Positions 1-46,555 of a DNA stretch of 56,249 bases are shown piece by piece; the stretch's first letter is position 1, and each line of letters opens with the position of its first letter. Where the stretch lies: NCBI GenBank assembly GCA_001784565.1, contig MFRL01000010.1, positions 9,276 to 65,524 of the forward strand, given 5' to 3'. A program made the position numbers and the translations under genes. Source of the DNA: Candidatus Melainabacteria bacterium GWF2_37_15 (GTDB taxonomy: Bacteria > Cyanobacteriota > Vampirovibrionia > Gastranaerophilales > UBA9971). Under the pieces are notes generated by a model that was not told the DNA's origin, ran no database searches, and saw nothing but the letters and a program-made list of their open reading frames with translations.

Positions 1-163
1 CATAGGCTTTATCGAGCAAATCTGATGTTTTTCTAAGATCAATAATATAAATTCCATGCCTTTCCCCATAAATATATTTTTTCATTTTAGGGTTCCAGCG
101 CTGGGTCTTGTGTCCAAAATGGACTCCTGCTTCCATTAATTCAAGCATTGATGCTACGGGCAT
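1..163 (-). CDS. rpsB: 30S ribosomal protein S2 (N-terminal part, cut by window edge)
   Basis: The first 54 codons of ribosomal protein S2 read on the minus strand; the rest lies beyond the window. The reading starts [20 protein letters not shown] and continues with [12 protein letters not shown] and [10 protein letters not shown], the conserved S2 N-terminus. S2 binds the 30S body and recruits S1. The ATG at 163 is preceded by a strong ribosome-binding site (AAGGAGAAG) at normal spacing, which fixes the start. Nothing else of its operon (tsf usually follows) is visible. Identification is firm although the gene is partial. Confidence 0.95.
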
Positions 164-39332: not shown

Positions 39333-40694
39333 ATGAATAAAGGCGAAATAATAGAACTGGAAATAACTAAACTTGTATATGGCGGTGAAGGCATCGGCAG
39401 ATATGACGATATGACTGTCTTCGTGTCTGATACTACCCCGGGTGATATCGTAAAAGCCGAGCTAATTTCTGTTAAAAATAATTACGCAAAGGCTATACTC
39501 AAAGAAGTTATTAAACCGTCTGAACAGCGAATAAAGCCCTTCTGCCCGCTTTCTAATGCGTGTGGTGGCTGTCAATGGCAATATATAAATTATGAAGAGC
39601 AACTCCGCGCAAAGAAAGTTATAGTTGAAGAATGCCTGAAAAAAATCGCAGGAACTGAAATTCCCGTCAAAGATACTATAAGCAGTTCAGAAACAAAAAA
39701 TTACAGATGCAAGATTCAGTTCCCCGTGCAGCAAACAAAGGTTTCAAAACGGTTTGTGGCAGGGTACTATAAAAAAGGCACCCATGACCTGGTGAATATA
39801 AAATACTGCCCGGCTCAGCCCGAAATAATAGATGAAATAACCGCATTCCTGAGAGAAAAGGCGGCTGAATTAAACCTTACAGCATACAATGAAAGAAATA
39901 AAAAAGGACTTATACGCCATTTTGTTTTCAGGTACAGCAAAACCGCACAGGATGTAGTACTTACAATTGTGATAAATGCTGAAAAAACTCCTGAAAACCT
40001 CATCAAACTCTGTGATTCGGTTAAAGAAAAGTTCCAACAAGTAGTGGGCGTGGTTGTTAATTTCAACACCAGCCATACAAATCTTATCATGGGCAAGAAT
40101 TCACAGCTTATACACGGCCGGGACTACATTGAAGAAATGCTTGACAGTAAAATATTTAAAATTTCGCATGATGCTTTTTTTCAAGTAAATCCTTTAACTG
40201 CCTCAAAAATATTTAATGAGGTCAGGGAAATAGTTAAGCAGAGGGTAAATAATCCGAGCATTTTGGATATTTATTCAGGTTCAGGCAGTTTCTCGATTTA
40301 TTTAAGCGATTTAGCGTCTGAAATAGTTGCCGTAGAGGAAATCGAAAGTGCTATTAATGATGGGAAAGAAAACATATTAAAGAATAATATCCAAAATATT
40401 CATTATATCAATGAAAACGCAGATACCGCTGTCCCAAAATTAGCAGCTGAGGGCAAAAAATTTGATGTAATAATCCTGGATCCGCCAAGAAAAGGGTGTT
40501 CCAAGGAAGTGCTTGAAGCAGTAAAGCAGCTTGCAGATAAATTCGTGATTTACATAAGCTGCGACCCCTCCACGCTTGCACGGGATTATAAAATATTAAG
40601 CGATAAGTTCACCGCAGAGTTTGTCCAGCCTGTTGATATGTTCTGCCATACATACCACGTTGAGTCCATCCTTGTCGCTCGTGCCAAAGATTAA
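39333..40694 (+). CDS. rlmD: 23S rRNA (uracil-5-)-methyltransferase RlmD-type
   Basis: A 453-residue SAM-dependent RNA m5U methyltransferase. An N-terminal TRAM domain (ELEITKLVYGGEGIGRYDDM) leads into an iron-sulfur cysteine set: CPLSNACGGCQWQ plus the later YCPAQ cysteine. The SAM motif is LDIYSGSGSFSIYLSDLAS, then LDPPRKGCSKEV and the catalytic SCDPSTLARDYKIL. Members modify 23S U1939 or U747, or tRNA U54; which one is not decidable here. The gene lies just upstream of the SOS-like pair but a clear promoter for that pair is inside the 50-base space. Confidence 0.85.
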   Translation: MNKGEIIELEITKLVYGGEGIGRYDDMTVFVSDTTPGDIVKAELISVKNNYAKAILKEVIKPSEQRIKPFCPLSNACGGCQWQYINYEEQLRAKKVIVEECLKKIAGTEIPVKDTISSSETKNYRCKIQFPVQQTKVSKRFVAGYYKKGTHDLVNIKYCPAQPEIIDEITAFLREKAAELNLTAYNERNKKGLIRHFVFRYSKTAQDVVLTIVINAEKTPENLIKLCDSVKEKFQQVVGVVVNFNTSHTNLIMGKNSQLIHGRDYIEEMLDSKIFKISHDAFFQVNPLTASKIFNEVREIVKQRVNNPSILDIYSGSGSFSIYLSDLASEIVAVEEIESAINDGKENILKNNIQNIHYINENADTAVPKLAAEGKKFDVIILDPPRKGCSKEVLEAVKQLADKFVIYISCDPSTLARDYKILSDKFTAEFVQPVDMFCHTYHVESILVARAKD

Positions 40695-40709: not shown

Positions 40710-40737
40710 TTGACATTTATAGACACATGTCTATAAT
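40710..40737 (+). promoter_or_regulatory. Consensus promoter with overlapping palindromic operator
   Basis: The -35 TTGACA (40710-40715) and -10 TATAAT (40732-40737) are both perfect consensus, 16 bases apart. Between and into them lies TATAGACACATGTCTATA (40718-40735), arms TATAGACA and TGTCTATA around a 2-base centre. A dimeric repressor bound there would cover the spacer and the -10. The predicted start of transcription is at 40744-40745, on the ATG of the repressor gene. The obvious ligand is the LexA-like protein encoded next. Confidence 0.85.
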
Positions 40738-40744
40738 GATTAAT

Positions 40745-41323
40745 ATGCTAACTCAAAAACAAAAATCTTTTTTTGAAAAACTTAAGGCCACATACGGCAA
40801 AGACCCGCTGCCCAGCTTTGAAAACATCGCATGTGAATTCGGGTTTAAGCATAAAAACTCTGTATGGCAGTACTTTAAAAAGCTCAAAGAATACAGCTTT
40901 ATAAACAGCATCGGAGAAAAATTCTTCATTAACCCCGAGCATTTCGGCGCTGTTCTTTTTGCCACCCCTGTGAAGGCCGGCTTCCCCTCGCCTGCTGAAG
41001 ACTATGTTGAACGCAGAATATCACTGGACAATGAGTTTAAAATTGATTCCCCCTCAACTTTTATGTTCACAGTTAAGGGCGACTCCATGATAGATGCGGG
41101 CATATTTGAAGACGACATGGTCGTGGTTAAGAGAAAGTCCGATCCTACTAGCGGTGACATAGTCCTTGCCTGCGTGGATGGAGAATACACACTGAAAATA
41201 TTCAGAAAGAAAGGACAGGATATTTACCTGGAACCCGCAAACAAAAATTATGACGTTATTAAAGCTCAAAACAGTATGGAAATATTCGGTATTGTAACAG
41301 GCTCAGTAAGAAGATTTGTATGA
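40745..41323 (+). CDS. LexA-UmuD hybrid: HTH repressor with UmuD-like S24 peptidase domain
   Basis: A 192-residue protein. Residues 1-65 are a LexA-type winged HTH (MLTQKQKSFFEKLKATYGKD, then SFENIACEFGFKHKNSVWQY). Residues 70-192 are an S24 self-cleaving domain with the UmuD-style KAGFPSPAEDYVERR: cleavage site Ala78-Gly79, nucleophile Ser114 in KGDSMIDAGI, lysine 151 in GEYTLKIF. It thus joins the DNA-binding half of LexA to the UmuD-like half. The in-frame ATGs at 40727 and 40736 lie in the promoter -10, so 40745 is chosen, giving a leaderless message. Its TGA overlaps the umuC ATG (41320-41323). Confidence 0.85.
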   Translation: MLTQKQKSFFEKLKATYGKDPLPSFENIACEFGFKHKNSVWQYFKKLKEYSFINSIGEKFFINPEHFGAVLFATPVKAGFPSPAEDYVERRISLDNEFKIDSPSTFMFTVKGDSMIDAGIFEDDMVVVKRKSDPTSGDIVLACVDGEYTLKIFRKKGQDIYLEPANKNYDVIKAQNSMEIFGIVTGSVRRFV

Positions 41324-42483
41324 CAAAAAAAATAGCATTAGTTGACTGTGATTCGTTCTTTGTATCGTGCGAACAGCTTGTAAATCCTGCACTGCTGAAT
41401 AAACCCGTATGTGTAGCGAGTAATAATGACGGTTGCGTAGTTGCCCGCTCAAAAGAGGCTAAAGCCCTTGGAATAAAAATGGGAATGCCTGTTTTTATGG
41501 CAAGGAAAGAATTCCCCCAAGCTATTTACCTCTCTGGAAATATGAACCTGTACGGCGATATTTCGGAAAGGGTTATGACAAAGCTAAAAGAGTTTTCCCC
41601 TGTAGTAGAGGTCTATTCCATAGACGAGGCGTTTCTTGACTTTACAGGATTAAGGAGGATGTATAGGAAATCTTATCCTGAAATAGCAGCACATATAAGG
41701 AAAACAATAAAGGACAAAGTTGGCGTTCCTGTTTCAATCGGGGTCAGTAAAACAAAAGTACTTGCAAAGCTGGCATCAGAACGGGCTAAAAAATTAGATG
41801 GGGTTTATAATATAGGTTTTCGTTCTATTAATGACGAGCTTAAACGCATAGAACTCATGGAAATTTGGGGAATTGGTAACAATACAGCCGCCTTGCTCAA
41901 TAAATACGGAATTCACACAGCATACCAGCTTGCTATGCTTGATGATTTTAGGGTTACTAAGCTTCTTGGCAAAAAAGGTTTGGAGTTAAAGCTGGAACTA
42001 ACCGGCAATAGTGTTTATCCTGTGAGTGATAAATACGTGGCTCCAAAGTCAATTCAGAAAACAAGTTCTTTCGTTTCTTTTACCTCTGATGAAGCATATA
42101 TTAAAAGCTCGCTTAACTATCACGTGCACCGGGCCTGTAAAAAACTCCGGCAACTGAATTTAAAAGCTAAAACAGTAAATGTTATGTTAAGGACAAAGGA
42201 TTTTAAAGTAGTTTACCAAAAAATAACCCTATTTCAGCCTACTGATTTTGAGTTTGAAGTTTTTGACGCTGTAAAACTTATCCTGCCGGAAATTTACACA
42301 CCGGGGATTATTTACAGGAGTTCAGGAATAATACTGGAGGATTTATCAGAACAGGCCCAGCTTTCTATATTTTCGTCACGGGCAAATAGTGTCCGTAATA
42401 CTAATCTGGCGCAGTCATGGGATAAATTGGAAAGTAAATTTGGAAGGGGGATTGTTTATATGGGGACGGAGAAGAAATTATAA
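41320..42483 (+). CDS. umuC: UmuC-type Y-family DNA polymerase
   Basis: A 387-residue translesion polymerase. The catalytic acidic residues are in LVDCDSFFVSCEQLV (residue 9) and VEVYSIDEAFLDFTG; VASNNDGCVVARSKEAKALGIKMG is the UmuC-type substrate loop, and ASERAKK, EIWGIGNNTAALLNKYGI (HhH) and the little finger domain follow. It starts by an ATGA overlap with the LexA-UmuD hybrid gene, so one promoter serves both. Activation by the cleaved S24 partner, as in UmuD'2C, is inferred. Confidence 0.92.
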   Translation: MTKKIALVDCDSFFVSCEQLVNPALLNKPVCVASNNDGCVVARSKEAKALGIKMGMPVFMARKEFPQAIYLSGNMNLYGDISERVMTKLKEFSPVVEVYSIDEAFLDFTGLRRMYRKSYPEIAAHIRKTIKDKVGVPVSIGVSKTKVLAKLASERAKKLDGVYNIGFRSINDELKRIELMEIWGIGNNTAALLNKYGIHTAYQLAMLDDFRVTKLLGKKGLELKLELTGNSVYPVSDKYVAPKSIQKTSSFVSFTSDEAYIKSSLNYHVHRACKKLRQLNLKAKTVNVMLRTKDFKVVYQKITLFQPTDFEFEVFDAVKLILPEIYTPGIIYRSSGIILEDLSEQAQLSIFSSRANSVRNTNLAQSWDKLESKFGRGIVYMGTEKKL

Positions 42484-45469: not shown

Positions 45470-46555
45470 TTAATGAGTAAAAATGCTTCCTACCCAATCC
45501 CTAAAGATATAGTTGGCATCCTGCGGTCCAGGGCCGGCTTCCGGGTGAAACTGTACGGTATTTATGTTTAATTTCGGGCAACAAAAGCCTTCCACTGTAT
45601 TATCATTAACATTTATGTGAGTTACCTGCATATTATCCGGCAATCCTTCGGAACATACCGCATAGCCGTGGTTCTGCGAAGTCATTATAACTTTGTTTGT
45701 CCGGGTGTCAATTACAGGATGGTTGCTGCCCCGATGCCCAAATTTTAATTTATAGGTATCTGCCCCCATGGCAAGAGCGAGTATTTGGTGTCCCAGGCAT
45801 ATCCCGTATAATGGAAGTTTGCTGATCAGCTCGCCTGCTGCTTTTATTGCTTCTTTAGCATCTTTTGGATCTCCGGGCCCGTTGGAAAATAGAACTGCAT
45901 CAAAATTACCATCAAGCAGGGTTTGAGCTTCGACATCGTGCGGATATATATGCACTTCGCAGTCAAGTTTTACTAAATGCTTTACTATGCCAGTTTTTAC
46001 ACCCAAGTCAATCAGGGCTACTTTTTTCCCTGAGCTTTTAATTATTTCTACATCCTTTCTGGATACCTGTTTAACCACATCAGATGGAAAAACAAATTCT
46101 TTGAGTTCATTTTTTAAATTGTCTTTTAACTGCTTACCTAATGAGCCTGTGATATCTTCGGTGGTTATTGCGCAGTTCATTACGCCTTTTGCCCTGATTT
46201 TTTTTGTCAACATTCTTGTATCCACGTCTGTTACGCAAGGAATATTATTTTCTTTAAGATATTCACTCACGCTTTTTGTACTTTTCCAGTTGCTTTCGAG
46301 GTCAGACAATTCTTTCACCACAAACCCACGCACATGAACCCTGTCAGACTCGACATCTTCCTCATTAATGCCGTAATTTCCGATGAGCGGATATGTCATT
46401 ACCACGACCTGCCCCGCATAAGACGGGTCAGTGAGGATTTCCTGGTAGCCTGTCATGCCAGTATTGAAAACGATCTCGCCAAATGTTGTAATTTCCGCCC
46501 CGCAGGAAACGCCTTCGATTATTGTGCCATCCTCAAGTACTATATATGCTTTCAA
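45470..46555 (-). CDS. carA: Carbamoyl-phosphate synthase small (glutaminase) subunit
   Basis: A 361-residue amidotransferase that makes ammonia from glutamine for CarB. The N-terminal half begins KAYIVLEDGTIIEGVSCGAE and has GEIVFNTGMTGYQEILTDPS. The class I glutaminase half has the nucleophile in LYGICLGHQILALAMG near residue 245 and the catalytic His-Glu in TVQFHPEAGPGP near 335. A good GGAGAATCAAC precedes the ATG. It follows argB in the arginine cluster with 15 bases between; carB is not in the window. Confidence 0.96.
   Translation of the reverse strand: MKAYIVLEDGTIIEGVSCGAEITTFGEIVFNTGMTGYQEILTDPSYAGQVVVMTYPLIGNYGINEEDVESDRVHVRGFVVKELSDLESNWKSTKSVSEYLKENNIPCVTDVDTRMLTKKIRAKGVMNCAITTEDITGSLGKQLKDNLKNELKEFVFPSDVVKQVSRKDVEIIKSSGKKVALIDLGVKTGIVKHLVKLDCEVHIYPHDVEAQTLLDGNFDAVLFSNGPGDPKDAKEAIKAAGELISKLPLYGICLGHQILALAMGADTYKLKFGHRGSNHPVIDTRTNKVIMTSQNHGYAVCSEGLPDNMQVTHINVNDNTVEGFCCPKLNINTVQFHPEAGPGPQDANYIFRDWVGSIFTH

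What the first reader, a model, noticed from the sequence alone, without database searches (positions are those of the whole stretch)
40710..40760. Leaderless self-regulated promoter of a LexA-like gene
TTGACA-16-TATAAT is perfect consensus, and an 18-base palindrome covers the spacer and -10. The expected start of transcription is seven to eight bases after the -10, i.e. on the ATG at 40745, so the message has no leader. Two earlier in-frame ATGs lie inside the promoter and cannot be used. The palindrome TATAGACA-CA-TGTCTATA is not the E. coli CTG-N10-CAG box, so a new operator type is likely.
Basis: partly seen in the sequence, partly recalled or inferred. Interest (0 to 1): 0.7.

Follow-up and report, generated by a model that had tools for sequence, protein, structure and literature searches.

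The report
Leaderless promoter of LexA-UmuD hybrid repressor
A gut-type bacterium controls an error-prone DNA-repair polymerase with a repressor that appears to shut off its own promoter, whose message seems to begin right at the start codon, and relatives show the DNA switch site and two of the protein's reading residues changing together.

Summary
At 40710-40737 lies TTGACA-16-TATAAT with a perfect 18-base palindrome (40718-40735), and ATG 40745 lies 7 bases past the -10. The gene encodes a LexA-type winged-helix domain joined to a UmuD-type self-cleaving domain, overlapping a umuC-like polymerase gene. In 75 intact relatives from one bacterial order the same promoter-operator is kept; in 69 of 75 the start codon is 6-9 bases past the -10, none with a Shine-Dalgarno match of 4 or more, against 63 of 74 umuC starts. 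So the leaderless reading is well supported, though no RNA was available. The operator is not wholly new: AGAC-N4-GTCT has the register of the Gram-positive GAAC-N4-GTTC and cyanobacterial GTAC-N4-GTAC LexA boxes, both present in front of orthologues. Operator type tracks two recognition-helix residues without exception, though over only about two evolutionary changes. Copies without an intact DNA-binding domain lack the operator (0 of 9). Most exact sites lie at this cassette (44 of 59), so the regulon is essentially one operon. Most likely one RecA-triggered cut both lifts repression and makes the UmuD'-like subunit; that step is inferred.

The parts
40710..40715 (+). -35 hexamer TTGACA
   Evidence: TTGACA in 49 of 75 relatives, TTGACT in 17
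40718..40735 (+). 18-base palindromic operator TATAGACA-CA-TGTCTATA; core AGAC (40721-40724)-N4-GTCT (40729-40732)
   Evidence: palindrome 8/8 in 52, 7/8 in 18, 6/8 in 5 of 75 relatives; column counts
40732..40737 (+). -10 hexamer TATAAT, four bases shared with the operator
40744..40745 (+). predicted transcription start (inferred from -10 spacing; 7th base after the -10 is 40744, first purine is A40745)
   Evidence: inference; in 62 of 75 relatives the gap is exactly 6 so that +1 would be the A of ATG
40745..41323 (+). LexA-UmuD hybrid repressor gene, 192 aa, starting MLTQKQK
40745..40930 (+). codons 1-62: LexA-type winged helix-turn-helix (H4-17, H25-32, H37-49, E53-56, E59-62)
   Evidence: AlphaFold2 model; full-length LexA matches
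40850..40870 (+). codons His36 to Gln42 of the recognition helix; His36 and Trp41 vary with operator type
40976..40981 (+). Ala78-Gly79 self-cleavage site
   Evidence: A-G in 75 of 75 relatives; aligns with E. coli UmuD Cys-Gly
41084..41086 (+). catalytic Ser114 (E. coli LexA Ser119)
   Evidence: 75 of 75
41195..41197 (+). catalytic Lys151 (E. coli LexA Lys156)
   Evidence: 75 of 75
41320..42483 (+). umuC-like Y-family polymerase gene, overlapping the repressor gene by 4 bases
   Evidence: gap -4

Best explanation
This is the autoregulated promoter of a two-gene SOS cassette. The first gene makes a repressor built of a LexA-type winged-helix DNA-binding domain and a UmuD-type self-cleaving domain; the second makes a umuC-like translesion polymerase. 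A repressor dimer sits on the palindrome, which overlaps the spacer and the -10, and so blocks RNA polymerase. When RecA filaments form on damaged DNA the repressor cuts itself between Ala78 and Gly79 (inferred from conserved residues), the promoter opens, and the released C-terminal half can serve as the UmuD'-like partner of UmuC (inferred, untested). Transcription starts on or one base before ATG 40745, so the message has no leader and is read from its 5'-terminal AUG (inferred from sequence comparison, no RNA data). The regulon is essentially this one operon.
For: Conserved promoter-operator: 75 of 75 intact relatives. Leaderless: start codon 6-9 bases after the -10 in 69 of 75 (exactly 6 in 62); ATG in 75 of 75; Shine-Dalgarno match of 4 or more in 0 of these 69 but 63 of 74 umuC starts in the same loci; 6 relatives have 23-46-base gaps and 4 of those 6 have such a match. 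Repressor-operator link: operator found by one scan in 76 of 78 copies with the DNA-binding domain (the two misses differ only in the outermost base) and 0 of 9 copies without an intact one; residue 39 (E. coli LexA numbering) is His in 46 of 46 with xGAC half-sites and Ser in 29 of 29 with GAAC/GTAC; residue 44 is Trp in 50 of 50 with xGAC or GAAC, and Lys/Ala/Val/Arg in 25 of 25 with GTAC; PMC3091678 lists both positions among E. coli LexA's DNA contacts. Where umuC is split off with its own promoter (5 genomes) it carries the same operator. Protein: TIGR00498 lexA matches residues 2-191, UmuD subfamily NF007621 passes its cut-off; best PDB sequence hit UmuD, then LexA; model has three helices and a two-strand wing, UmuD' Z 16.0 and full-length LexA Z 14-15. 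Cleavage A-G, Ser, Lys 75 of 75. No other LexA/UmuD homologue found in its genome; recA present in 13 of 13 genomes tested. Exact operator sites: 44 of 59 in 286 genomes lie at this repressor (38), umuC (5) or recA (1); the remaining 15 compare with 41 control sites (my tally; places checked).
Against: No transcript 5' end, binding or cleavage assay. Operator type changes only about twice on the tree, so the residue-operator match cannot reach significance by independent pairs. The upstream gene ends 16 bases before the -35 with no evident terminator, so read-through messages with a leader are possible here. Acinetobacter UmuDAb, the nearest tested analogue, could not replace UmuD in E. coli (PMC4807011), so the dual role may fail here too. 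TIGR00498 lies just under its cut-off for the window protein (108.5 against 110.95). Pfam's LexA DNA-binding model was not reported at E 0.001.
Confidence: 0.78

Rival explanations
1. Same autorepressor, but not truly leaderless: transcription starts a few bases upstream, or the gene is mostly read from messages running in from the upstream gene, and translation uses an SD-less short leader.
For: Upstream gene on the same strand ends at 40694, 16 bases before the -35, with no terminator evident.
Against: Gap of exactly 6 bases in 62 of 75 relatives with ATG in 75 of 75, and SD-like matches of 4 or more only in the long-gap relatives; upstream sequences differ among relatives while the promoter does not.
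Confidence: 0.15
2. The protein is a full SOS master LexA for the genome, with many targets whose operators are too degenerate to see here.
For: It is the only LexA-like protein found in its genome; one relative (G212) has a perfect operator about 150 bases upstream of recA.
Against: In 20 AGAC-type genomes sites with up to 1 mismatch number 70 against 113 control sites; in 12 GTAC-type genomes the only site common to all is this promoter; 10 recA upstream regions read have no AGAC-type site.
Confidence: 0.1
3. The palindrome is the operator of some other regulator and the LexA-UmuD protein is simply downstream.
For: No binding data exist.
Against: Operator absent in 9 of 9 copies without an intact DNA-binding domain; operator type follows recognition-helix residues; the site moves with umuC when the operon is split.
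Confidence: 0.05

Closest known systems
Acinetobacter UmuDAb (UmuD with an N-terminal DNA-binding region, represses umuDC operons)
   Same: UmuD-type C-domain, self-cleavage site, represses its own and umuC-type genes, genus lacks LexA (PMC4807011 and PMC11332147 passages, PMC8565304 passages).
   Different: UmuDAb's N-terminal ~78 residues do not align with LexA by BLASTp and its operator has an unusual central core; here the N-domain aligns with LexA over its length and the operator is a plain LexA-type box in the GAAC/GTAC register; no DdrR-type partner was looked for.
LexA of Gram-positive bacteria and cyanobacteria (GAAC-N4-GTTC, GTAC-N4-GTAC boxes)
   Same: Winged-helix domain, half-site register, A-G cleavage site, Ser/Lys dyad; orthologues in this order carry exactly these two boxes.
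   Different: C-domain nearer UmuD, fused into a umuC operon, AGAC-N4-GTCT operator, one-operon regulon, leaderless gene.
HdiR-UmuC of Lactococcus/Streptococcus
   Same: A self-cleaving repressor regulating itself and a UmuC homologue (PMC8565304 passages).
   Different: HdiR clusters with phage repressors (PMC8565304 section 19), not with LexA; its operator was not compared here.
Lambda cI and transposon tetR leaderless messages
   Same: Repressor genes translated from a 5'-terminal AUG (PMC4965119 passages call them naturally leaderless); that both are autorepressors is recalled.
   Different: Chromosomal SOS-type regulator; here the operator overlaps the -10 and the leaderless geometry holds in 69 of 75 relatives.

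Membership tests
LexA (transcriptional repressor, TIGR00498) | Full-length match over the curated cut-off | tested here: inconclusive
   window protein 108.5 bits against 110.95, residues 2-191; 53 of 286 genomes of the order have a match over the cut-off, among them orthologues of this gene and some other LexA proteins
LexA (transcriptional repressor, TIGR00498) | Winged helix-turn-helix N-domain | tested here: met
   AlphaFold2 model H4-17, H25-32, H37-49, E53-56, E59-62; LexA-DNA structure 3jso aligned over 163 residues, Z 14.0, rmsd 9.5 over both domains
LexA (transcriptional repressor, TIGR00498) | Ala-Gly cleavage site and Ser/Lys dyad | tested here: met
   75 of 75 relatives
LexA (transcriptional repressor, TIGR00498) | Controls several SOS genes including recA | tested here: not met
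   No surplus of sites over control; recA site in 1 genome; degenerate sites could be missed
UmuD (Pol V autoproteolytic subunit) | UmuD-type C-domain over the curated subfamily cut-off | tested here: met
   NF007621 116.8 bits against 110; best PDB hit UmuD 80.5 bits; UmuD' Z 16.0
UmuD (Pol V autoproteolytic subunit) | Gene next to umuC | tested here: met
   umuC-like gene overlaps by 4 bases
UmuD (Pol V autoproteolytic subunit) | Cleaved form activates UmuC | not testable with these tools
   needs a mutagenesis or polymerase assay
Acinetobacter UmuDAb | N-domain not alignable with LexA; core-type 21-bp operator | tested here: not met
   N-domain aligns with LexA; operator is AGAC-N4-GTCT
Leaderless mRNA | 5' end at or within a few bases of an AUG start | not testable with these tools
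   geometry and missing SD agree; no RNA data

The most novel reading that the evidence does not exclude
One protein is both the repressor and the polymerase's UmuD subunit, so that a single RecA-driven cut opens the promoter and arms the mutator enzyme. Because its regulon is one operon, the operator is free to change (GAAC, GTAC, AGAC/GGAC) in step with two recognition-helix residues, without the gene duplication invoked for other LexA motif shifts. The same leaderless, operator-on-the--10 layout recurs in an unrelated MarR-family gene of this order, so leaderless self-repression may be a common design in these bacteria.
Probability: 0.35. Interest if true: 0.75.

Novelty: new variant of a known kind. 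Interest (0 to 1): 0.6.

Why it matters
LexA binding motifs are known to shift widely between bacterial groups (17 reported; PMC8565304 section 20) and the model given there rests on gene duplication. Here a mostly single-copy orthologous family shows three operator forms with matching recognition residues and a near one-site regulon, so each step can be rebuilt and tested at one promoter. It also offers a natural comparison of leaderless and leadered versions of one gene.

Tried and rejected
Looked for further operator sites in the own genome: with up to 3 mismatches to the 18-mer, 8 sites including this one against 16 control sites; none of the other 7 has fewer than 3 mismatches. Order-wide exact 14-mer: 59 sites in 57 of 286 genomes; by my tally 38 at the repressor gene, 5 at split-off umuC, 1 at recA, 15 elsewhere (4 in genomes with a homologue, 11 without), against 41 control sites. 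Considered an RNA hairpin role for the palindrome: rejected because it lies upstream of the predicted start and has no U-run. Considered that the operator is wholly new: rejected, see the GAAC and GTAC orthologues. Tree-based test of residue-operator coupling: 2 independent pairs for residue 39 and 1 for residue 44, all agreeing, p not below 0.5, so the coupling rests on exact agreement and on the known contact positions. Rfam on seven loci: nothing above a gathering score. Calditrichaeota hits L066 and L068 are ordinary-looking LexA genes with GTAC-N4-GTAC sites and leaders. Literature: no paper on LexA regulation in this order turned up in searches for LexA with Melainabacteria and operator (0 papers) or with Gastranaerophilales (2 papers by title unrelated, listing only). 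Rows dropped before the counts of 75: of 78 copies with the DNA-binding domain, L012 (no intact frame found), L013 (truncated second copy in G007) and L125 (cut by a contig end). The nine copies without an intact DNA-binding domain (L116-L124) and L011, L115 and L126-L129 (cut or distant) were kept apart; the two split G129 pieces were not in this set. The first automatic choice of operator in L096 was a wrong AT-rich palindrome and was replaced by the site at the promoter.

Full report
What is there. The window lies in a 2.27-Mb draft genome (G000, 92% complete). Named public records of relatives are mostly titled Candidatus Gastranaerophilales. At 40710-40737 there is TTGACA-16-TATAAT, and the perfect palindrome 40718-40735 covers most of the spacer and four bases of the -10. 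Shuffles give 1.7 such palindromes per window by chance, so the palindrome alone is ordinary; its overlap with a perfect promoter was seen in 0 of 200 shuffles. ATGs at 40727 and 40736 lie in frame inside the promoter; ATG 40745 is the start that matches the conserved protein beginning (MLTEKQK, MLSEKQK and the like in relatives).

The gene. The 192-residue product matches the UmuD subfamily NF007621 over its cut-off (116.8 against 110 bits) and lexA TIGR00498 over residues 2-191 just under its cut-off (108.5 against 110.95). In the PDB the best sequence hit is UmuD for residues 70-188, followed by LexA, with E. coli LexA aligned over residues 2-189. An AlphaFold2 model from 38 sequences (mean pLDDT 80.7) shows three helices and a two-strand wing, a low-confidence linker holding the cleavage site, and a C-domain; the structural aligner puts UmuD' first (Z 16.0, 106 residues, rmsd 3.1) and full-length LexA at Z 14-15. 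So it is a LexA-UmuD hybrid. The next gene, overlapping by 4 bases, is a umuC-like polymerase.

Relatives. An order-wide search found relatives in 90 of 286 genomes. I fetched their loci and read 78 copies that keep the DNA-binding domain, 75 of them intact, plus nine without an intact one. Every one of the 75 has the promoter-operator: -10 TATAAT in 43, CATAAT in 31, CATAAA in 1; spacer 17 in 63; palindrome 8/8 in 52, 7/8 in 18, 6/8 in 5.

Leaderless geometry. The gap from the -10 to the start codon is 6 in 62, 7 in 5, 8 in 1 and 9 in 1 of 75; the other six have 23-46. All 75 start with ATG. With a simple score (longest match to AAGGAGGTGA within 20 bases), 0 of the 69 short-gap genes reach 4, against 63 of 74 umuC starts in the same loci and 4 of the 6 long-gap genes. 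Within the window itself, 23 of 38 non-overlapping open frames of 150 codons or more reach 4 at some start in the first 30 codons. Leaderless initiation depends on an AUG at the 5' end (PMC4965119 passages). In 12 whole genomes the pattern TTGACA-15..18-TATAAT-5..8-ATG occurs 22 times, once in each genome at this gene; in G000 nowhere else.

Operator code. Half-sites fall into xGAC (AGAC or GGAC; 46 relatives), GTAC (24, plus one GCAC/GTAC) and GAAC (3, plus one GAAC/GTAC). Seen from the centre these share one register, AC-N4-GT; GAAC-N4-GTTC is the B. subtilis and GTAC-N4-GTAC the cyanobacterial LexA box (PMC3091678 passages). Recognition-helix position 39 (E. coli numbering) is His in all 46 xGAC and Ser in all 29 others; position 44 is Trp in all 46 xGAC and all 4 GAAC-bearing, and Lys, Ala, Val or Arg in all 25 GTAC-type. 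Both are among E. coli LexA's DNA-contacting residues (PMC3091678 passage). The tree of the C-domain needs only two changes of operator type, so this is consistent but not statistically independent evidence. Copies without an intact DNA-binding domain have no such site (0 of 9).

Regulon. Exact TAGACANNTGTCTA occurs 59 times in 286 genomes against 41 control sites; by my tally 38 at the repressor, 5 at umuC genes split off from it, 1 near recA, 15 elsewhere. With one mismatch allowed in 20 AGAC-type genomes there are 70 sites against 113 control sites; in 12 GTAC-type genomes only this promoter is shared by all. recA is present in 13 of 13 genomes; ten recA upstream regions could be read, and none has an AGAC-type site. 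So the regulator seems to serve its own cassette. Five genomes with a second operator in front of umuC (L016, L020, L022, L076, and G107 as L174) have weakened first operators (GGAC or mixed), which suggests that the second site took over.

Mechanism. Shown by sequence: promoter, operator, conservation, cleavage residues, operon. Inferred: repression by steric block, RecA-triggered cleavage, leaderless translation, UmuD' role of the released half. The cleavage site A-G and the Ser/Lys dyad are invariant in 75 of 75. The nearest tested analogue, UmuDAb, represses umuDC genes but could not replace UmuD in E. coli and has a different N-domain (PMC4807011, PMC11332147 passages), so the dual role stays open.

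Judgement. Self-cleaving repressors that control umuC-type polymerases are known (UmuDAb, HdiR; PMC8565304 passages and sections 19-20). New here are the LexA-domain/UmuD combination in this order, the AGAC-N4-GTCT operator, its matched variants among orthologues, and the conserved leaderless layout. I found no report of it in the searches named under Tried and rejected.

Noticed in passing
L205-L234 (and L195-L197), other genomes of the order: A MarR-family gene (one product checked in Pfam) has the same layout with another palindrome: TTGACAATAGTTAGATATCTAACTATAAT; pattern found in 40 of 146 genomes. In 27 of 30 loci with a readable gene (two of them apparently not MarR-like) the start codon is 6 or 7 bases after the -10 in 11, 10-15 in 3, and 21 or more in 13.
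   Followed up: partly
L023, L025-L041, L070-L085 and others, between repressor and umuC: In many AGAC-type genomes an 80-400-base gap before umuC holds a UUCCUCC or AUCCUUCCUAAUA motif with a G+C-rich stem and U-run, like an attenuator; stems differ in sequence but keep pairing in the six group-A sequences folded singly, while the consensus folds were weak (-1.48) or nil. No Rfam match above gathering.
   Followed up: partly
L176:638 (G212): Perfect operator TATAGACAGATGTCTATA about 150 bases upstream of recA, in one genome only.
   Followed up: partly
L165 (G220 recA promoter): TGAACATTTGTACA, a GAAC/GTAC-type site, upstream of recA in a genome whose own repressor is of the His/Trp type.
   Followed up: no
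L181:1454-1764 (G007): A truncated second copy holding only the DNA-binding domain, with its own perfect operator, beside a full copy elsewhere in that genome.
   Followed up: no
L117-L124: UmuD-like genes of the same family lacking the DNA-binding domain, next to umuC, without the operator.
   Followed up: partly
45684-45711, minus strand: A second perfect TTGACA-TATAAT pair in the window, inside the open frame at 45470-46555; probably chance.
   Followed up: no
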